This document shows positions 17,039 to 38,175 of a stretch of 38,175 nt of DNA, piece by piece. Under the pieces are notes generated by a model. It was not told where the DNA came from. It did not search any database and saw nothing but the letters and a program-made list of their open reading frames with translations. Every line of letters begins with the position of its first letter. The first letter of the stretch is position 1. Made by a program: the position numbers and the translations under genes. Source of the DNA: a virus; IMG/VR virus record IMGVR_UViG_3300047996_000241, positions 1 through 38,175 of that record; one strand, 5' to 3'.

Positions 17039-18883
17039 TTAGTCTTTCTTCACAAACTGTTCAAATGTCATAAATTTAGACTCTGCAACACCCATAGAAA
17101 CCTCTAATTTTGTCCTTAATTCATCGTACATTCCGTGAATTGGCTTAGGTGTTAATTTCTTAAATAATTTCTCATCTCCATCTAACATAGCATTCCTGAC
17201 TTGTGTTGCAGAAATATTCTTGCCAGATCTTGGAATTTCAAATAAACCAAAATCTTCTCTACAATTTAAAGATTCTCTGTATTCTGGTTTATCAACTTGA
17301 TATGAGTATGTTTTTAATCTGTCTGTTCCTGTTCCCCAAAGTACTGGTTCATAACCATCGGCTCTCATTGCGTTAAACATATAATCTATTGCTGCTCTAT
17401 CTAAAATATAAACTTTCTCAATTGGATATTTAGATTTTAGTTTATTAAGCATTGCTAATTGAGTTTCTTCGTCATATGGTCTTTTAAACGCATCTTCTGC
17501 TTTTTTGGTTTTTGACTTGATTAATAAAACAACAACAGGATGTCCGTTTTGTTTACTAATAGTATCTATAACTTTAGCATGTCCTAATGTAAAGGGTTGG
17601 AAACGACCAACAAACATGTTTACTGGTTTTTTGCCTTGATCAGGATACTTAACAGTTAACCCTTCCATAATAGGGCTCACGTCTCCTGATAATTTTTGAT
17701 TAATTAAATATCTTTTAAAATCCATGACGTCTTTTTCGTTTGTTTTACCCATTACAATAGTCTCTATTTCTTCAACTACTTCGTTGATCTGAGACAATAG
17801 ATCTGAGTTAATAATATCTGTTTCTTTAGATCTTTTCTTTCTAAAAGATCCTAATGTAATTTTAAAAAGCTCTGATAAGACCTTGTTTTGTATAAGAGAT
17901 AACGTCTTTTCGTTAGACATAAATGCAGTATTTAGTTCGAAGTTTTCCCCTTCTGCAAAATCTGCTGAATCAAAATCTGCGCCTACGTACTTCGTAGCAT
18001 GTTTCTCAACATATGCGTTAAATACAGAAGACATTAATTCAACATATCTAAGATCTGCATCTTCTTCTTTTAATTCTATATCTGATAAATCAAATGCTAC
18101 TAAAAATTCTACTAAATCTAATATAGAGATTTGATACATGTCGGATGGTTTTCTAACCGGCAATTGTTCTCTATCAAATCTTTCTAATTTAAAACTTTTT
18201 GGATTTCTACCTTCATAAAAATTTACTACTAAGGCATCTATCTCTTTGTCTAAATTTAGGTTTAGTGCAGACTTGTTTCTACCATTGTCAAATATGCGAT
18301 AAATGTCTCTAGTAAATGATCTGTCTTTGTACTTGATCTTAAATGCTTCTTCACCTAAAGACAATAAGTTTATCAATTCTTCTTTTTGATTAGATGCTAA
18401 TTGTCCTTGGAACAAAAGAGGTAATTCTTGTACTTCTAATTTCTTTGCCCACTTATCTAAAACCTTAGGATCTCTAATAACTCTTTTAACTTTAGAAGGA
18501 TCGCTAGGATTTAATACTTGAATATGTGTTAATATAAGATTGTTTTTTGGCAATAGATCATATTCAATGTCTATTGTCTTTTTGTCTATCATGTAGTCAA
18601 ACCCAAACTTCCAATCAAGTGGCATATCATTTAATATTTCAGCTGAAATTGTTTTAAAATGCTTTATACCATTTTCATAATACTTAACAAGCGTTCTATC
18701 AACTTTATTCATGGCAGTTTTGGAACCACTTTTAAAGAAATCAAATTCTCCAACATCAACTCTCTTTACATGAAAGCTTGAAGCTTGTACCTTTTCATGT
18801 ACAACACAAATATTGTCTAATAACTTTTTAAAGTCATTAACGTTTGTAGATTCAAAATATGTTTTTAGGTTTTGTAGTGCCAT
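17039..18883 (-). CDS. Fusion: ligase-like N-terminal domain plus NadM-like nucleotidyltransferase, 614 aa
   Basis: C-terminal residues 421-590 are a HxGH-type nucleotidyltransferase: GRFQPFTLGHAKVI (425-438) matches the NadM/NMNAT and cytidylyltransferase ATP-binding motif, and ISATQVR (557-563) is the ISSTxxR motif. The expected reaction is transfer of AMP (or CMP) to a phosphorylated substrate such as NMN, giving NAD+. The first 400 residues are less clear. VHEKVQASSF (28-37, K31) resembles motif I of RNA ligases of the Rnl2 type in degenerate form, and MEGLTVK (406-412) could be motif IV. The same IME407|G can instead be read as a prohead-protease site between the domains. The chain ends in FEQFVKKD, a tail shared with the 152-aa protein at 27597-28055. 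It lies between two other packaged-looking genes, so the enzyme may be carried in the virion. Confidence 0.65.
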   Translation of the reverse strand: MALQNLKTYFESTNVNDFKKLLDNICVVHEKVQASSFHVKRVDVGEFDFFKSGSKTAMNKVDRTLVKYYENGIKHFKTISAEILNDMPLDWKFGFDYMIDKKTIDIEYDLLPKNNLILTHIQVLNPSDPSKVKRVIRDPKVLDKWAKKLEVQELPLLFQGQLASNQKEELINLLSLGEEAFKIKYKDRSFTRDIYRIFDNGRNKSALNLNLDKEIDALVVNFYEGRNPKSFKLERFDREQLPVRKPSDMYQISILDLVEFLVAFDLSDIELKEEDADLRYVELMSSVFNAYVEKHATKYVGADFDSADFAEGENFELNTAFMSNEKTLSLIQNKVLSELFKITLGSFRKKRSKETDIINSDLLSQINEVVEEIETIVMGKTNEKDVMDFKRYLINQKLSGDVSPIMEGLTVKYPDQGKKPVNMFVGRFQPFTLGHAKVIDTISKQNGHPVVVLLIKSKTKKAEDAFKRPYDEETQLAMLNKLKSKYPIEKVYILDRAAIDYMFNAMRADGYEPVLWGTGTDRLKTYSYQVDKPEYRESLNCREDFGLFEIPRSGKNISATQVRNAMLDGDEKLFKKLTPKPIHGMYDELRTKLEVSMGVAESKFMTFEQFVKKD

Positions 18884-31260: not shown

Positions 31261-32064
31261 TTAGAATCTCAAAAATTTAGGTGACCAATACACTCCTAAA
31301 CCAATAGAAGGACCAGTACTAATTACTTGATTATTATTTAAGTTTATTCCATAACCAACTCCAATACCAATAGACCATCCAGCTTTTTTCTGAACTTTTC
31401 TATTTAATCTTGTGTTAATTAAGTTGATATTTTCAATATCTTTTATTTCTATACCCGGGTAACTGGTACTCAATTTTAATCTATCAGCACCATCTATATT
31501 TTCGATAGCTGCCATTAGACTTAAAGTTTGTGTTAATTCAAATTTACTATCTAGCACTTTAAATTGACCAAAATCATATTTGATAATAGATGTTCCAAAC
31601 AATGATCTAGAATTACCATTACCAAAATCTGCATTAGAAGTAAAAGTAACCTCTGCTGAAGTTGAATCTATTTGTGTAACATTGGCATCAGCTAATAAGC
31701 TATCCTTTATTTCTAATTCTGCAGAAATCAATGAGTTAACTGTACTTAAATCCTCAGCTAAATCTAGGGCTTTCTGGTATTTTTTAGTCAATTTAACAAG
31801 ATTGTTATTTTTTACAGACAAGTCTACTTTATACGATCTTATTTGTGCTAATTGATCTCCGTTTTCATTTCTCAAAACTGTAACAGAGTCTTGAGATGCT
31901 TTTAAATTATTAAGAGCTATATTAGCATCTTCTTGTGCATACTTAACGTCTTGTTTCAAAGAAGCCACTTGGTTGCACTGTTTTAAAAATAACAGCACAA
32001 AAAGAGCACCCAATACAAATGTGAGGGTGTTCTTATTGCCAAATATTTTCTTAATTATTTCCAT
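31261..32064 (-). CDS. Membrane-anchored coiled-coil protein with beta C-terminus, spanin-like candidate
   Basis: A 267-aa protein with an uncleaved-looking N-terminal transmembrane helix (about 12-28, FVLGALFVLLFLKQC), a long coiled coil (about 32-125), and a C-terminal beta segment rich in Gly (GWSIGIGVGYGI, GPSIGLGVYW) ending in Phe. The order inner-membrane anchor, periplasmic coiled coil, outer-membrane-like end would fit a one-piece spanin that fuses the two membranes at lysis. Similar proteins are common in Bacteroidota phages. No lipobox is seen and no holin or endolysin is adjacent; a tail or assembly protein is the alternative. Confidence 0.4.
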   Translation of the reverse strand: MEIIKKIFGNKNTLTFVLGALFVLLFLKQCNQVASLKQDVKYAQEDANIALNNLKASQDSVTVLRNENGDQLAQIRSYKVDLSVKNNNLVKLTKKYQKALDLAEDLSTVNSLISAELEIKDSLLADANVTQIDSTSAEVTFTSNADFGNGNSRSLFGTSIIKYDFGQFKVLDSKFELTQTLSLMAAIENIDGADRLKLSTSYPGIEIKDIENINLINTRLNRKVQKKAGWSIGIGVGYGINLNNNQVISTGPSIGLGVYWSPKFLRF

Positions 32065-32081
32065 GTAAATTTATTATTAGT

Positions 32082-33302
32082 TTATTTTCCACCCGGTGGT
32101 AGACCAGTACTGCCTGGTGTTGGCGCTGGAGTACAATCAGAAATTCCCATAATCTCATCTTCCATGAAACCAAATACTTTTCCTACTTGTGCAGCTGCAC
32201 TACCTGTGGCAGCAGTAACCTGTCTACTACCCTGATTATTTGGTAATGCCCCAGAAATAGAATCACCTACTACGAATACACCATTATCAACATAAGAATA
32301 GGTATCTGTTGTTGATGCACCACCACATTCTGTATCACCGACTGCTCCGAAAGAAATTGTTCCAGAGTTTGAAGTTGCTTGTGTATTTGCTTCAAGTTGA
32401 ATAGTTGTATTTGCAGAGTTTCCGCTAAATGAAGGGAATGTAAAACTAAACTTATATGTTGCCATTCCAGTACTTCCATTAAAGAACGCTGAATGGCTTT
32501 CATCATCACTTAGAATTGAAGTTACTTCTCCAGTTGCAGATGGTACAACATATCCACCACCAGCTGATTGCCATTCTCTACCACTATTAGGTGACATATT
32601 AACATCTATTACCACCGTGTCTCCAGCTTCTCCAGTTATTGGTCCACCCGTAACACCTAGTCCAAAGCCAGAAGATGCTACTTGACCAGATGAATCTGGA
32701 CTTATACTCATGCTACTAATTCCCCAGTTATTTTCAGTATAACCTTTTGTAACTGTCATCTGTAAAACAGGTGTACAATCACTAATAGACATAATCTCAT
32801 CTTCTTGTATTGCAAATACTTTTCCTACTTGTGCAGCTGCACTACCTGTTGCTGCTGTAACAACTCTGACAGCTTGACCATCAGATTCTGCTCCAGGAAT
32901 AGAATCACCTACTTGGAAAATACCGTTATCCGTATAATTAAACGTATTTACAGTTGTCGCGGTACAAATGCTAGAATTCTTAGGACCTAATGAAATTGTT
33001 TCAATACTTGGTCCAGGTGTTGGTGTTGGTGTCGGAGGACTTGTTGGAGTTGGAGTTACAGTTACGCTTCCATTTCCAGCAGCCTGATTAACATTAATAG
33101 AATTAGTAGTTGTTCCGTCAGCGTGGTTTACTGTTAATGTAGCAGACCTCGCTTGATTTGTTTGGTTATCATTTACCGTAATTTCCCAGGTATCTGAAGA
33201 ACCTACTTGATTAATCGTGATCCAGCCCGTTGCCGGGTTAGTCCACGAATACTCGGCGCTACTAGGAACTACTGTTACTGTTCTTGTATATGTGTGTGCC
33301 AT
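32082..33302 (-). CDS. Fibre/adhesin-like protein with BACON-like domain and PT linkers, 406 aa
   Basis: Residues 1-75 resemble a BACON domain (AEYSWTNPATGWITI, QARSATLTVNHADG, INVNQAA), a fold common in Bacteroidota and their phages that binds glycans or mucin-like polymers. A Pro/Thr linker (about 80-98, TPTPTPG) follows, then two copies of a module with the core AATGSAAAQVGKV and ending ISDCTP, separated by a beta-sandwich-like domain. The modules share 12 of 13 core residues and are also repeated in DNA (32143-32215 and 32786-32858). A host-binding fibre or head decoration is likely. Modular repeats are sites where domain exchange may change host range. Confidence 0.65.
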   Translation of the reverse strand: MAHTYTRTVTVVPSSAEYSWTNPATGWITINQVGSSDTWEITVNDNQTNQARSATLTVNHADGTTTNSINVNQAAGNGSVTVTPTPTSPPTPTPTPGPSIETISLGPKNSSICTATTVNTFNYTDNGIFQVGDSIPGAESDGQAVRVVTAATGSAAAQVGKVFAIQEDEIMSISDCTPVLQMTVTKGYTENNWGISSMSISPDSSGQVASSGFGLGVTGGPITGEAGDTVVIDVNMSPNSGREWQSAGGGYVVPSATGEVTSILSDDESHSAFFNGSTGMATYKFSFTFPSFSGNSANTTIQLEANTQATSNSGTISFGAVGDTECGGASTTDTYSYVDNGVFVVGDSISGALPNNQGSRQVTAATGSAAAQVGKVFGFMEDEIMGISDCTPAPTPGSTGLPPGGK

Positions 33303-33347
33303 TTTAGTTTGTTTTTATTTCTTATTTATTTATTTCAATTTTATTAT

Positions 33348-34829
33348 TTAACCTGCTGGTATATAATCACTAGAGTCGCCATCGAATTCGTCCGCATCGT
33401 AATCCACGTCCCATAGTGTTACAGTTGGTGTTATATTTGGTGTTGGTGTAATAAAATTGAGCTCGCCGCCTTTTCCACCGACCACTAATTCATAAAAGAA
33501 AGATCCACTTCCACTGGTGTTTCCACCTATTGATAGCGACAATCCATTATATTGTGATGATATTGGAGATGCTGTTTGCGTAAACGTCATAGTTCCACTC
33601 CATGTGCCACCACCTTCTTCACTAAATGAAGAATTTAATTGAGGACCAGTTGTATTTGTTCCCGAAACAAAATTGTCAGATACTGAATCCGGTGCAACTG
33701 GAGACGTTCCAGCCGGCACGTTTGTTAATGTATATCCTACCGTAACCGTCAATGGAAAATTAGTATATGCAGTGGGCTGCGTATCGAATTGATCTAAGTG
33801 AACACCCAATGTTGCAGCTGGTGTTGGTGTTGGTGGAATAGGAGTCGGAGTAGGAGTTGCTGATCCAACTGGTGTACCGTCTGCGTTTGCATCGATATTT
33901 CCACCTCCAATAGTAATACTATTATTATTTACTGGTGTACCGTCTGCGTTTGCATCGATATTTCCACCACCTATAGTAATACTATTAGGTACTGCCGATC
34001 CACATTCTGTACATAATTCTTTCCACTCATTAGATGCAAAGTAACCTTCAAATTTATTATTTACTGAATTGTACCTGATCATACCAGCTATTGGCGATAT
34101 AGGATCAGATGAGTTGTTTAAGCGTACATATCCTTTAAATTCTGCGTTTGCATCAACATCAACGATCCCTGTACTTAAAGTTTCTAATTTAATATTGCTT
34201 CCGCCACCCGATTGAAGAGTAACTCCACCGCCACCGGTGATAGATGTTAACCCGCTTGAATCAAAATCTATTTGATCAACATTAATTGCAAACTGAATGT
34301 TTTGTGCTTGGAATGCATTTTGAATGGCAAATCTAGTTATAGAGTTATTTGAGTCGTATGTACTTGTAACCGATAGTTTTTCACCACTAACGTCATCCAA
34401 TAGAGTAATGTAATTATCAAACGCTATTGAATCTTTTTTAATAGTTATCTTAGAATTAAGACCTGTGTTTACTCCATCTACTAAAGTTGTTTCATCGAAA
34501 GAATCATCACCTAAAAATATAACAGGTGTATATGTTAACCCTAACCTTTTAGGTTTTAGAATTTTATAAGTAGAATCTACAGCAGGGTCTACAGAAAACC
34601 ATGGAGTATTAGTAGTACCAGTATCACCTTTTATACCTTGGTCACCTTGGTCACCTTTAACACCTTTTTCTCCCGTTAATCCTAGGTTTCCCTGTTGTCC
34701 TTTCTGGCCCTTTTGGCCTCTTGGTCCACCCCCATTTGCAAGAATCTGATCAAAGTTATAATTAATCTTTTCAAACTTAATTGAGTCAGAATCGCTAGGG
34801 TGTAATATTTCTCTAATGTTGATTGCCAT
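33348..34829 (-). CDS. Tail fibre-like protein with collagen-like repeats, 493 aa
   Basis: N-terminal domain (residues 1-33) resembles a fibre attachment region. A collagen-like run of about ten Gly-x-y triplets follows (about 34-68, beginning GPRGQKGQKG). A central beta region leads to GMIRYNSVNNKFEGY, a motif that I know from phage fibres with attached chaperone-type ends. Then come two copies of NSITIGGGNIDANADGTPV, a PT-rich linker and a C-terminal Ig-like domain. The linker type (TPTPTPIPPTPTP) is shared with the neighbouring BACON-like protein, so the two probably build one fibre or form a family of adhesins. Confidence 0.7.
   Translation of the reverse strand: MAINIREILHPSDSDSIKFEKINYNFDQILANGGGPRGQKGQKGQQGNLGLTGEKGVKGDQGDQGIKGDTGTTNTPWFSVDPAVDSTYKILKPKRLGLTYTPVIFLGDDSFDETTLVDGVNTGLNSKITIKKDSIAFDNYITLLDDVSGEKLSVTSTYDSNNSITRFAIQNAFQAQNIQFAINVDQIDFDSSGLTSITGGGGVTLQSGGGSNIKLETLSTGIVDVDANAEFKGYVRLNNSSDPISPIAGMIRYNSVNNKFEGYFASNEWKELCTECGSAVPNSITIGGGNIDANADGTPVNNNSITIGGGNIDANADGTPVGSATPTPTPIPPTPTPAATLGVHLDQFDTQPTAYTNFPLTVTVGYTLTNVPAGTSPVAPDSVSDNFVSGTNTTGPQLNSSFSEEGGGTWSGTMTFTQTASPISSQYNGLSLSIGGNTSGSGSFFYELVVGGKGGELNFITPTPNITPTVTLWDVDYDADEFDGDSSDYIPAG
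33868..33968. repeat. Tandem 63-bp repeat in the fibre gene
   Basis: A 38-nt stretch at 33868-33905 is identical to 33931-33968, with similarity continuing past each copy. The period is 63 bp, or 21 codons, so gain or loss of a unit keeps the reading frame. Confidence 0.8.
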
Positions 34830-34830
34830 T

Positions 34831-37800
34831 TTATGACTTTATTTTTATCATAGGTTTTATATCATAAGAGTAGCCTAATCTTTTATTATATATCAACCTA
34901 AAATTCATTGGCTTTTGGACGTGATTTCTATATGCGAAATTATTTCTATCAATTGTAAATCCATCAGAATCTAATTGATCAATAGTCACCGCACTAACTA
35001 TCTTTGAACCTTTGCCTTTTTTCTGTTTAACGTATAACATAATAGAATCTAAAATATAAGTTTCTACTAAATTATTTTCTGCATACATCAATGCATCATC
35101 ATTAAGTGTTTCTTTATTACCAGCAGAATTTGACGGTTCAACATATTGAGATATGCTGGCCAATACACCTTCTTTGGCTAACTTAGTAATTAAAGTATCT
35201 GTTATGTAAAAATCTGCCATTACATAGTTTTTATTTTCAAATAAAACTATATCAGTTGAATTTTCACTGTTTCTTAATATTTCATCTAGCTCTTCTTCTG
35301 AAGAAACATATGAAGCACTAAAGTCTAGTAGATTATAAGAATCCTTTGGCTTCATTACAGTCGATGCTAAATATGATCTTTCTTCATGAGTATCAAGTGT
35401 TCCCGGAATATTTATAGAATTACCGCCGTCTAGCGATCTAGTATAATAATTAGAATCCCAAGAAGATCTAAATACATTAATATCTTTTTTATCGATTGCT
35501 ATTTCCCCAATTAATGGATAAAGCGGTAACTTATCACTAGTGCCCGATAATTTAGTTACACCACCTGGGTTTATTTCATTTACTTTATGATAAAAATGAT
35601 TTTTTATTAATCCCCACTGAGAATCATGTGTACCGTCATCGCTAATAAACCCTAAATTAAATGATATACCACACTTATTATATCTTCTATAATATGCAGC
35701 AGCCCTATTAAATTCATCTAAGTCTAAGAGCGAGTGCTTATATAATTGTTGCTCGAAATTTAATTCATTTAAGTTTGAGGTTAAATGTAATCTATTAACC
35801 TTAAAATGAGAATACAAATCTGTAAATGTAACTACAGGCTTCATGTCTACTGTGTATTTACCATTGTGTCTAATTAAGAACGGGTAATATTCAGGTGACA
35901 TTGATAATTTATAACCAATATTACCTTTAAACAACTTGAAACTTTTAGGCTTATCAGTATCTTCTTCAATAGTCAAATTAGATCTTTGTATTATTTCAGT
36001 ACCATCACTGAAGTTTATAACAAATCTATTGTTAAGAATTGTACCGTCAGATTCTACTGTTGTGTATGTAACATCATCATTGTTTAAATTAACTAAATCA
36101 GCAACTGATTTTGCTGTTAACCTTTCTAAAATTATTTTATGAGCGTTTGCTCCTCCACCAACATACGTGTACTGTGCACCGCCTTGAATAGAGTTAGGCA
36201 AGAATTCAATATCTAATATATCGGTTTCGTCAGTAATGTTAACAGGCTTACCAGATATTTTTAATGAATTATCAGAATCTACTGAAACAACCGAAACCTT
36301 GTAAATAGAATTAGTATCATCTGTAGGGAACAAATCTATATGAATGTCTCCATATAAACCATTTTCGCCCAGTGTAATCTGAGAATCGAATTCAGGTAAT
36401 GTGCCGTTAATGTGTTGAATTCCAGGAATTGTATACGGACCTTCATCTGACCAATTAACGCTTGGATCATTGAATTTTAATGCACCATTAAATTTAGTAT
36501 CTGCATACGTAAAGTCGTTGGCATCTGTATCAAAAACAATTTTATGATTCAATTCATATAATAACTTTCTATTAACATTACCATCAATCCAATAATCACC
36601 TAAGTCAAGTGTAATATACAATATTACAAACTTAAATTGTTTATTTTGAATAACCTCATACGATATGCCATTTGTTTCAGCGTCTTCATTAACTTTAAGC
36701 ATTACACTAAATTTGTAACCATTAAACTCGCTGCTTTTAACAAATTCATTTGCCGTAGAATTAATAAATTCCTTTCTATTCTTAAAATCTACCTTAATAC
36801 CTTTAAAAACAGTACTAGCAAATGTAAGATTATTACCACCGCTCACTAAAGAATATTTTTTCTTTAAGTTTGTTTTAATGAAAGAAGTAATGCTATTTTC
36901 TAGTGAATTTATTTCAGAATCACCAGGTAATATATCTTCATATATTTCAACTAAATCTTCTTCGGTTAAAGTCTTTTCAAAACCGTCACTGATCATGAAT
37001 GTGTCGAAATAATTATATGTTGTGCTTTTAAATAAATTAGGACTTAAATCAAAACCATCTATAAAATTAATGTAACTAAACGTTTCATTTAGCTGATTGT
37101 ACTTTAAATACTTAGGTGGTTTCTCAATATAGAACCACTCATGTGTCATGGCTTCTCTATCTCTTTCAGATATTGTTAAATCCGGAGAGAAATTAGTTCT
37201 ACCAAATGCTTCGTTTGCATTTAAATAATATGGCTGTTCTCTTACGGTGACAGAATCTTTAAGCACCCACTTATTAATGTTAGGCACTATTCTAGAATTA
37301 GTAGCATATTCTTTTAAACTGTTTTCTTTAAGTCTATCAAATTCAGAAGTAATTTGTTCATCTTCCTCTTCGTCTATTGATTCTTCTAAAAGAATCTGAG
37401 ATAAGTTTGAAAAATAATTGATTGGATCTAATTCAAAATCTTCACTAAAAATATCTCTAGCTCCTAAAATTGTAGTTTCAATTCCTGTCGTTTCATCAAT
37501 GTTATTAACAGCATTGATGTATGGCTCATAGTCTATTTCTTCTTGAGTTTCATAGACTAGTTCTTTAATATCAGAATTAGATGTATCGTAAAAATCAACA
37601 TTCATATCATATATGTCATATGCTGAAAACAAACCTAATCTTACTTCATTTTCATAATAAACCTTACTGTTACCGGTTTCTAAATCATTTTTATCCTCTA
37701 AAATAACTTTACTAAAGTCAGAATTCTCAGTATTAATATCTTCGACAATATCGATTATTTTATTATAAACACCTTTGTATCTTGTTTCTATAAAGTCATT

Positions 37801-38175
37801 TATGTTTATCTCGCTAACAGTTTCGTTGTTTACTAATATTGCCTTTCCTGGTGCATTTCCACCTGACAGGTAATATGAGTCATATCTTTCTAAAATAGCT
37901 TGACCAGGCAATAAATCTATGTTTTGCCTTAGATCTAATCTATTGAAATTATCTTTATTTGAAAGCGTTAAGAAATCATTAACGTTTCCTTTTCCTAAAA
38001 GAACACACGATTGTAATAATTCATATCCAGAAATAGAACTAACTATATAAACAGATGAACCTACGTTATAAGAACTAAATCGAGTTTCGTTACTGTCTAT
38101 ACATGCAGACAATGCAACAGCAATATCAGTAGTAGTACCTTGATTAGAATATCTTTGGCCGTTAAATGTTCCAGC
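34831..38175 (-). CDS. Large virion structural protein, 5' end beyond the window
   Basis: The frame is open to the window edge, giving at least 1,114 codons; a start at 38112 would be a TTG inside an open frame, so I treat the gene as partial. Near the edge are TDIAVALSACIDSNETRF and VGSSVYIVSSISGYELLQSC, followed by long beta-rich, Asn/Asp-rich sequence with few basic residues. The size and composition fit a baseplate, tail or fibre-attachment protein. No named domain recognised. It abuts the fibre gene with 1 nt between, so they are co-transcribed. Confidence 0.6.
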   Translation of the reverse strand, partial: AGTFNGQRYSNQGTTTDIAVALSACIDSNETRFSSYNVGSSVYIVSSISGYELLQSCVLLGKGNVNDFLTLSNKDNFNRLDLRQNIDLLPGQAILERYDSYYLSGGNAPGKAILVNNETVSEININDFIETRYKGVYNKIIDIVEDINTENSDFSKVILEDKNDLETGNSKVYYENEVRLGLFSAYDIYDMNVDFYDTSNSDIKELVYETQEEIDYEPYINAVNNIDETTGIETTILGARDIFSEDFELDPINYFSNLSQILLEESIDEEEDEQITSEFDRLKENSLKEYATNSRIVPNINKWVLKDSVTVREQPYYLNANEAFGRTNFSPDLTISERDREAMTHEWFYIEKPPKYLKYNQLNETFSYINFIDGFDLSPNLFKSTTYNYFDTFMISDGFEKTLTEEDLVEIYEDILPGDSEINSLENSITSFIKTNLKKKYSLVSGGNNLTFASTVFKGIKVDFKNRKEFINSTANEFVKSSEFNGYKFSVMLKVNEDAETNGISYEVIQNKQFKFVILYITLDLGDYWIDGNVNRKLLYELNHKIVFDTDANDFTYADTKFNGALKFNDPSVNWSDEGPYTIPGIQHINGTLPEFDSQITLGENGLYGDIHIDLFPTDDTNSIYKVSVVSVDSDNSLKISGKPVNITDETDILDIEFLPNSIQGGAQYTYVGGGANAHKIILERLTAKSVADLVNLNNDDVTYTTVESDGTILNNRFVINFSDGTEIIQRSNLTIEEDTDKPKSFKLFKGNIGYKLSMSPEYYPFLIRHNGKYTVDMKPVVTFTDLYSHFKVNRLHLTSNLNELNFEQQLYKHSLLDLDEFNRAAAYYRRYNKCGISFNLGFISDDGTHDSQWGLIKNHFYHKVNEINPGGVTKLSGTSDKLPLYPLIGEIAIDKKDINVFRSSWDSNYYTRSLDGGNSINIPGTLDTHEERSYLASTVMKPKDSYNLLDFSASYVSSEEELDEILRNSENSTDIVLFENKNYVMADFYITDTLITKLAKEGVLASISQYVEPSNSAGNKETLNDDALMYAENNLVETYILDSIMLYVKQKKGKGSKIVSAVTIDQLDSDGFTIDRNNFAYRNHVQKPMNFRLIYNKRLGYSYDIKPMIKIKS

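What the first reader, a model, noticed from the sequence alone, without database searches (positions are those of the whole stretch)
32082..34829. Paired fibre proteins with BACON-like, collagen-like and PT-linker modules and in-frame repeats
Both proteins have PT-rich linkers and internal repeats that keep the frame (63-bp units in one, a 70-codon module in the other). They look like rapidly changing adhesins assembled from host-type glycan-binding domains.
Basis: partly seen in the sequence, partly recalled or inferred. Interest (0 to 1): 0.5.

Follow-up and report, generated by a model that had tools for sequence, protein, structure and literature searches.

The report
Phage fibre genes with swappable tips
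Two neighbouring genes of an uncultured T4-like phage each keep a fixed base piece and, past a springy proline-threonine linker, carry an exchangeable end piece, and related phages carry end pieces of the same kinds on either gene, which is probably how they change the surface they stick to.

Summary
Gene A (33348-34829, minus strand) has a collagen-like stretch, two 21-residue repeats (63 bp) and a PT linker; gene B (32082-33302) has a BACON-like N-terminus, a PT linker and a duplicated ~70-residue module. The interpretation shifts. In 64 related loci with both fixed flanking genes (44 also have B), A residues ~1-325 and B residues 1-76 (BACON) are the conserved bases; what follows the PT linker is replaceable. 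Against L004 (flanks 96-97% identical DNA) homology stops inside A's linker and at the start of B's; both tips are unrelated. Tip families occur in both genes: 25 of 42 tip segments fall in two groups with A and B members, and in L006/L007 two tip types sit the opposite way round. Near-identical genomes differ by whole linker or repeat units. So the N-terminal 75 residues look like the base, and the C-terminal tip is the first piece to test on glycans, though a BACON-only phage protein elsewhere promotes uptake by epithelial cells. No reverse transcriptase was found in 12 related records. Side finding: 20 of 37 distinct B proteins, not the window's, end in an intein-like domain. Tail-protein domain shuffling is known; two interchangeable slots are a new variant.

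The parts
33348..34829 (-). Gene A, 493 aa, collagen-like tail fibre
   Evidence: 72 related loci
34728..34829 (-). A residues 1-34: N-terminal base, presumed virion attachment
   Evidence: 26 of the first 29 residues invariant in 25 aligned sequences (window and 24 relatives)
34617..34727 (-). A residues 35-71: Gly-X-Y collagen-like stretch
   Evidence: Pfam Collagen E 1.2e-4, under cut-off; PHROG tail-fibre families; 11 Gly columns invariant
33975..34616 (-). A residues 72-285: conserved shaft
33868..33987 (-). A: two 63-bp (21-aa) repeats; the matching repeat of L007 (26-aa unit) is one unit shorter in L010
33807..33863 (-). A residues 323-341: PT linker; the alignment to L004 ends here (aa 340)
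33486..33806 (-). A tip (residues 342-448), family also found as B tip of L004, L007 and L010 and as A tip of L006, L008 and L013
33303..33347 (-). A-B intergenic stretch, conserved in L004 although the gene before it differs; right edge of slot A
32082..33302 (-). Gene B, 406 aa, BACON-based presumed adhesin
33075..33302 (-). B residues 1-76: BACON-like conserved base
33000..33062 (-). B residues 81-101: PT linker; the alignment to L004 ends just before it (aa 76)
32775..32999 (-). B ~70-aa module, copy 1 (residues 102-176)
32352..32774 (-). B middle tip domain (residues 177-317), related to part of the A tip of L051
   Evidence: B 182-393 against L051 A 320-522, 45%
32130..32351 (-). B ~70-aa module, copy 2 (residues 318-391)
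32094..32123 (-). B second short PT stretch (residues 394-403)
34831..38112 (-). Conserved upstream gene D (1093 aa), fixed left flank of the cassette
31261..32064 (-). Conserved downstream gene S (267 aa), weak Rz-like spanin similarity, fixed right flank

Best explanation
A and B are two adhesin slots of a T4-like phage tail. SHOWN: each protein has a conserved N-terminal base (A: invariant N-terminus, collagen-like stretch, shaft; B: BACON-like domain), then in most cases a PT-rich linker, then a C-terminal tip that is replaced between some close relatives; in the window/L004 pair the replaced stretches begin at the linkers and end at or near the stop codons; tips of the same families are found in either slot; linker and repeat units change in number between near-identical genomes. 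INFERRED: A is a trimeric tail fibre, B attaches to the virion through BACON, the tips bind host-surface receptors (probably glycans), and the tips are moved by ordinary phage recombination, for which the repetitive linker DNA gives short homology and the linker peptide tolerates length changes, so a new tip can join without disturbing the base. Repeat-number changes would then tune reach, and tip exchange would change specificity.
For: Window vs L004: 95.7% DNA identity from D to A aa 340, then an unrelated A tip, 93% over the A-B gap plus B 1-76, then an unrelated B tip, 97.4% from 10 bp before S; protein identities 99% (A base), 12% (A tip), 93% (B base), 11% (B tip), 99% (S). L006 vs L007, D 95.2% identical: L006 A tip resembles L007 B tip (47%, E 5e-29) and L006 B tip resembles L007 A tip (70%, E 6e-79). 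Of 6 compared pairs with D 94.9% identical or more, 4 have A tips at most 29% identical and 2 have B tips at most 17%; of the 4, two are replacements and two are gain or loss of tip sequence (L015/L051, 110 against 330 aa; L020/L024, 20 against 88 aa). 25 of 42 tip segments fall in two groups present in both slots. Whole-unit indels: L007/L010 26 aa, L022/L024 18 aa, L017/L020 12 and 10 aa in A and 13 aa in B, L018/L020 12 aa, L045/L046 7 aa, L067/L068 2 aa, next to D genes 99.5-100% identical. A and B of one genome share longer identical DNA past the bases than A and B of different genomes: sum 406 nt against 262 expected, 0 of 10,000 permutations, 21 genomes. In the 462-kb phage LR756500 the same order D-A-S-T has a 1789-aa protein in A's place, with by eye a similar N-terminus and collagen-like run, ending in Peptidase_S74 (E 3.9e-14; recalled as a chaperone of trimeric fibres), and no ORF of 100 aa in B's place. 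T4-type portal in 7 of 10 related records; UvsW-like helicase in the window.
Against: No binding, virion or structure data. AlphaFold models are poor (A mean pLDDT 45.5, B 52.4, only the BACON part near 80), so the tip folds are unknown. A single-BACON protein displayed on a phage raised uptake by epithelial cells (PMC13370021), so the base may bind too. Not every close pair shows replacement: L019/L026 B tips are 91%, L015/L051 B tips 85%, L038/L043 A tips 83% identical. In the linker-homology test the window alone is weak (16 nt; 4 of 100 codon-preserving shuffles reach it), L004, L007, L008, L011 and L034 show nothing, the longest shared stretch of L033 lies in the tip, and relatedness among the 21 genomes inflates the pooled result. 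In L006/L007 the traded tips are only 47-70% identical, so that pair was not made by one recent swap inside one genome. 18 of 50 A and 7 of 37 B proteins have no PT linker by my rule, which misses some PT arrays. tblastn with the window's A finds no match in the phage collection that holds LR756500, so that A is placed by order and by eye. Metagenome assemblies can miscount tandem repeats. 17 of 50 distinct cassettes (20 of 64 loci) have no B gene, and some of these have almost no A tip.
Confidence: 0.7

Rival explanations
1. One reading: the BACON N-terminus of B is the glycan-binding part, and the variable C-termini are stalks or spacers.
For: BACON is named for presumed carbohydrate binding; [quoted passage not shown]
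Against: The BACON piece is the conserved part while the C-terminus is replaced; the closest solved BACON (3ZMR, Z 7.4) was reported unable to bind the substrates tested (passage) and is described as a spacer (passages).
Confidence: 0.17
2. Diversity is made by a diversity-generating retroelement or a site-specific inversion system.
For: Variable C-termini of tail proteins are a usual target of retroelements (recalled).
Against: No RVT_1 match in any of 12 related records, while 3 of 14 control genomes ring; the differences seen are whole-domain replacements and unit indels; the only inverted repeats listed inside the two genes are 15 nt. The records may be fragments.
Confidence: 0.03
3. The tips are under weak selection: the downstream ends of late genes simply collect foreign DNA and the tips have no receptor role.
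For: Some cassettes have almost no tip (L065, L066: A of 274 aa; L020 A: about 20 aa after the linker) and some have no B.
Against: Reading frames stay open, tip families recur in both slots, and within a family residues are conserved.
Confidence: 0.1
4. B is not an adhesin but a secreted or injected effector with BACON and, in relatives, HINT, like polymorphic toxins.
For: PT-HINT is best known from polymorphic toxins (recalled); 20 of 37 B proteins carry a HINT-like domain.
Against: Only a short tail follows the HINT in the 11 aligned proteins; no signal peptide seen, by eye only; B shares tip families with the fibre A.
Confidence: 0.05

Closest known systems
Domain mosaicism of phage receptor-binding proteins (Smug et al. 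2023, PMC10684548; abstract, outline and section 14 read)
   Same: Near-identical N-terminus with unrelated C-terminal receptor-binding domains in closely related phages.
   Different: Here two adjacent genes of one phage draw on shared tip families, and the joints are PT-rich linkers; the part read does not describe such cross-slot trade.
Modular BACON/Ig-like adhesins of gut phages (PMC13370021; abstract, outline, sections 7 and 9 and passages read)
   Same: BACON with other domains in different combinations, in phages predicted to infect Bacteroidota.
   Different: Gut phages and human epithelium there; here BACON is a conserved base, and the partner domains have no Pfam match over cut-off in the proteins scanned, apart from the under-cut-off PT-HINT in L024.
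BACON domains in crAss-like and other gut phages (PMC6949934; abstract, outline and the first part of Results read)
   Same: BACON in phage genomes, some near tail genes.
   Different: Its abstract says tandem BACON arrays lie near tail proteins and single BACON domains do not; here a single N-terminal BACON with a variable tip lies among tail genes.
Host recognition cluster of pelagimyophages (PMC7029224; passages read)
   Same: Variable region with tail fibres in T4-like phages; collagen repeats among putative receptor-binding proteins.
   Different: A large island (mean 44.6 kb) with glycosyltransferases there; here a cassette of 0.8-3.6 kb with fixed edges.
BACON domain of B. ovatus GH5 (PDB 3ZMR)
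   Same: Best structural match to B residues 2-78, Z 7.4, rmsd 2.2.
   Different: Part of an enzyme, not a phage protein. Z under 8 may be only a common Ig-like arrangement; a nuclear pore chain (7.1) and a phage SU10 tail protein (6.9) are tied with it.
A-type bacterial intein-like (BIL) domains (PMC7765530, passages)
   Same: B proteins of relatives: N-terminal Cys, C-terminal His-Asn, PDB profile hits 2lwy and 6tmm/6y75.
   Different: At the C-terminus of a phage protein with a short tail; absent from the window's own B.

Membership tests
BACON domain (PF13004) | Profile match over curated cut-off | tested here: inconclusive
   21.4 bits (cut-off 25); 27.8 bits, over cut-off; relative L006 B 27.5 bits, over; L011 B 21.3 and L024 B 23.7, under
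BACON domain (PF13004) | Characteristic W, N, R, Q (PMC6949934) | tested here: met
   W27, N46, R52, Q73 (my matching by spacing) invariant in 20 of 20 sequences
BACON domain (PF13004) | Ig-like sandwich fold | tested here: inconclusive
   3ZMR best, Z 7.4, but other rows are within 1 and cadherins follow at about 6; Foldseek no match at E 0.001 or better
BACON domain (PF13004) | Carbohydrate binding | not testable with these tools
   needs an experiment
Collagen-like phage tail fibre | Gly-X-Y run and tail-fibre profile matches | tested here: met
   23 PHROG families, best 3.1e-8, all but one matching within residues 24-118, mostly the collagen stretch, so not independent; Pfam Collagen under cut-off
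Collagen-like phage tail fibre | Trimeric fibre in the virion | not testable with these tools
   indirect only: the protein in A's place in LR756500 ends in Peptidase_S74
Receptor-binding protein with conserved base and variable tip | Base conserved, tip replaced between close relatives | tested here: met
   not in every close pair
Receptor-binding protein with conserved base and variable tip | Tip decides host range | not testable with these tools
   needs an experiment
Diversity-generating retroelement target | Reverse transcriptase in the genome | tested here: inconclusive
   RVT_1 in 0 of 12 records, any of which may be a fragment
A-type BIL (relatives' B only) | Cys1 and C-terminal His-Asn | tested here: met
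   C1, H154, N155 invariant in 11 of 11; the 11 were cut out by a poly-Gly-Cys pattern, so C1 is partly by choice
A-type BIL (relatives' B only) | HINT/BIL profile match | tested here: met
   PDB 2lwy 4.5e-10, 6tmm/6y75 about 5e-11; Pfam PT-HINT in 5 of 11 and Intein_splicing in 5 of 11 at E 0.001, the one shown being under cut-off
A-type BIL (relatives' B only) | Self-cleavage | not testable with these tools
   needs an experiment

The most novel reading that the evidence does not exclude
The cassette is a dedicated tip-exchange device. PT-linker DNA is kept alike between A and B of one genome because it is the recombination joint, so a phage lineage can take a tip into one adhesin, copy or move it to the other, and keep two different specificities at once. 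In one related clade the B adhesin also carries a self-cleaving intein-like domain that processes or covalently fixes the adhesin after assembly.
Probability: 0.25. Interest if true: 0.68.

Novelty: new variant of a known kind. Interest (0 to 1): 0.5.

Why it matters
It gives a natural series, 64 loci with both edges and some pairs 95-100% identical next door, in which the joints of adhesin exchange can be read off directly. It tells experimenters which end of the protein to test first. If the cross-slot trade is real, a phage can hold two specificities and reshuffle them. The intein-like domain in relatives raises a testable question about how phage adhesins are processed.

Tried and rejected
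Cultured phages: no tblastn match to A or B at E 1e-5 among 50,697 phage records. B as a whole protein finds one locus, nearly identical to the window, although its first 76-80 residues find 52 (I did not check each of these for an A gene). Retroelement: no RVT_1. Structure prediction of full A and B was too poor to name the tip folds; I did not search with the A model. Two tip profiles (A4, A9) have no match in solved structures by sequence at E up to 1; the 70-aa module gave only matches at E 0.12 or worse, which I take as chance. Tip family A9 and the 70-aa module: no relative found in bacterial and archaeal genomes, with two patterns each, so distant relatives can be missed. The L007 A tip as a single protein finds only 3 loci, its own lineage; the 70-aa module 3 loci; A9 19 loci. 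Rfam (gathering threshold) and tRNA: nothing in the window. Papers: searches listed no paper that I recognised as describing PT-linker tip exchange between two adhesins, or HINT domains in phage adhesins; only the open-licence library was searched, from lists, and one deposited record (Phage NCTB) already names a tail protein that contains an intein domain. Passages of two phage papers mention inteins in terminase or reductase only.

Rows dropped: 8 of 72 A loci lacked the S gene and were left out of the cassette comparison; exact duplicate cassettes were counted once; L003 was replaced by the window itself. L070 kept only a 91-aa fragment under my ATG rule and still counts among the 50 A proteins. 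B genes were called by blastp to the window's B 1-78 at E 0.01. One search compared 22 chosen representatives, of which 15 pairs passed the 88% limit; one search used 21 genomes; one search took 44 proteins, of which 42 had a tip of at least 50 aa.

Full report
The window is a 38,175-base virus record. Genes recognised on the minus strand include ribonucleotide reductase, DNA polymerase, a UvsW-like helicase, primase, single-strand binding protein, a RuvC-like resolvase and a weakly matched tail tube. T4-type portal genes occur in 7 of 10 related records searched. Distant matches of neighbouring genes are to a Flavobacterium phage, to Tenacibaculum phages (7-8% of the query only) and to uncultured huge phages, so the host is probably a member of the Bacteroidota (inference).

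A carries a collagen-like stretch at 35-71, two 21-residue repeats at about 281-321 and a PT linker at 323-341. B carries a BACON-like domain at 24-74, a PT linker at 81-101, and two copies of a ~70-residue module around a middle domain.

Relatives were sought with A (72 loci), B (1 locus), the upstream gene D (80 loci kept, 158 matching stretches) and the BACON base of B (52 loci). In 64 of the 72 A loci, L003 of the window's own lineage included, both fixed flanks, D and S, are present. 44 of these 64 have a B gene; of 50 distinct cassettes 17 have none and four have two. A's base and B's base are conserved; what follows is much less so.

Close pairs show how. Window against L004: identity 95.7% runs through D into A and stops at residue 340, inside the linker; a different tip and an extra 204-aa gene follow in L004; identity returns 2 nt after the window A's stop codon for 272 bp, covering the gap and B 1-76, and stops at the start of B's linker; it returns 10 bp before S. 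One short 69-bp match links the window's A tip to L004's B tip. L006 against L007: similar edges at the linkers, and the two tip types are in opposite slots. L015 against L051: about 200 residues are inserted after the A linker while the final tip is kept. L020 against L024: A has or lacks a tip between the PT array and a shared GGGSPSS end. Of the six changed slots in these four pairs, the left-hand end of the BLAST alignment lies inside or within 5 residues of a PT stretch in all six; in one (L020/L024) my linker rule catches only part of the longer PT array, so that one is judged by eye. I chose these pairs because they differ; other pairs at similar distance (L019/L026, L038/L043) keep one or both tips at 83-91%, and in L038/L043 and L036/L037 the change includes a second B gene.

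Tip families cross between slots: 52 A-to-B matches at E 1e-4 or better over at least 40 aa, many from related genomes; clustering of 42 tip segments gives two groups, 13 and 12 members, both with A and B members. In L033 the A and B tips of one genome are 66% identical, which looks like a copy from one slot to the other.

Copy-number variation: one search lists whole-unit, in-frame indels of 2 to 26 residues in linkers and in the A repeat between genomes whose D genes are 99.5-100% identical. Assembly error cannot be excluded, above all for repeats.

Does the linker DNA serve as a joint? Within one genome A and B share longer exact DNA past their bases than across genomes (406 against 262 nt summed over 21 genomes, 0 of 10,000 permutations), with single cases of 50 nt (L041), 40 nt (L030), 32 nt (L006) and 29 nt (L033, in the tip, not the linker) that none of 100 codon-preserving shuffles reached. 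The window itself is not exceptional. This supports exchange between A and B in some lineages and does not prove it.

Function. The protein in A's place in the 462-kb phage LR756500 ends in Peptidase_S74, and L067 has by eye a similar end after a PT linker; L062, also scanned, has no such match. This fits a trimeric fibre. B's base fits BACON by conserved residues and, weakly, by fold. Since the base is conserved and the tip replaced, the tip is the likely receptor-binding part; this is inference, and a report that a single-BACON protein raises phage uptake by epithelial cells (PMC13370021) leaves room for the base to bind as well.

An unexpected feature of the relatives: 20 of 37 distinct B proteins, and 0 of 50 A proteins, match a HINT profile made from 11 of them, with an invariant first Cys and final His-Asn in those 11 and matches to solved BIL domains. 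Similar domains occur in 52 phage records, 46 of them Erwinia phages, annotated as hypothetical, virion structural or tail proteins, with single other labels; the one Erwinia protein I translated also has a collagen-like run. The window's B lacks the domain.

Verdict: a real and interesting but not categorically new system. Base-plus-variable-tip is known for phages; the two interchangeable slots with PT joints, and the intein-like ends in relatives, are the new part as far as the papers I could search show.

Noticed in passing
relatives' B genes, e.g. L024:10986-11513, L036:10534-11055: C-terminal intein-like (BIL/HINT) domain in 20 of 37 distinct B proteins, absent from the window's B.
   Followed up: partly
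L253:3014-4456 (Erwinia phage pEa_SNUABM_22): A virion protein with a collagen-like run and a C-terminal HINT-like domain; similar HINT matches in 52 phage records.
   Followed up: partly
L004:6553-7167; L059:4030-4626: Extra ~200-aa gene between A and B (L004) or between A and S (L059); by eye a nucleotidyltransferase-like GG...DAD motif; no Pfam match for the L004 copy.
   Followed up: no
L003 (contig IMGVR_UViG_3300046167_000767): Nearly identical to the window but its B copy is frameshifted after about 229 residues; the window copy is intact.
   Followed up: partly
L207 (LR756500.1): Same gene order D-A-S-T in a 462-kb phage, with a 1789-aa protein in A's place ending in Peptidase_S74 and no B-sized ORF.
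   Followed up: yes
L037, L043, L035, L060: Two BACON genes in one cassette; in L035 and L060 short, in part almost BACON-only ORFs.
   Followed up: no
window 31261-32064: Gene S has only weak Rz-like spanin similarity although it is a fixed flank in 64 loci.
   Followed up: no
window 17039-18883: 614-aa protein with a C-terminal cytidylyltransferase / nicotinamide-nucleotide adenylyltransferase-like domain.
   Followed up: no
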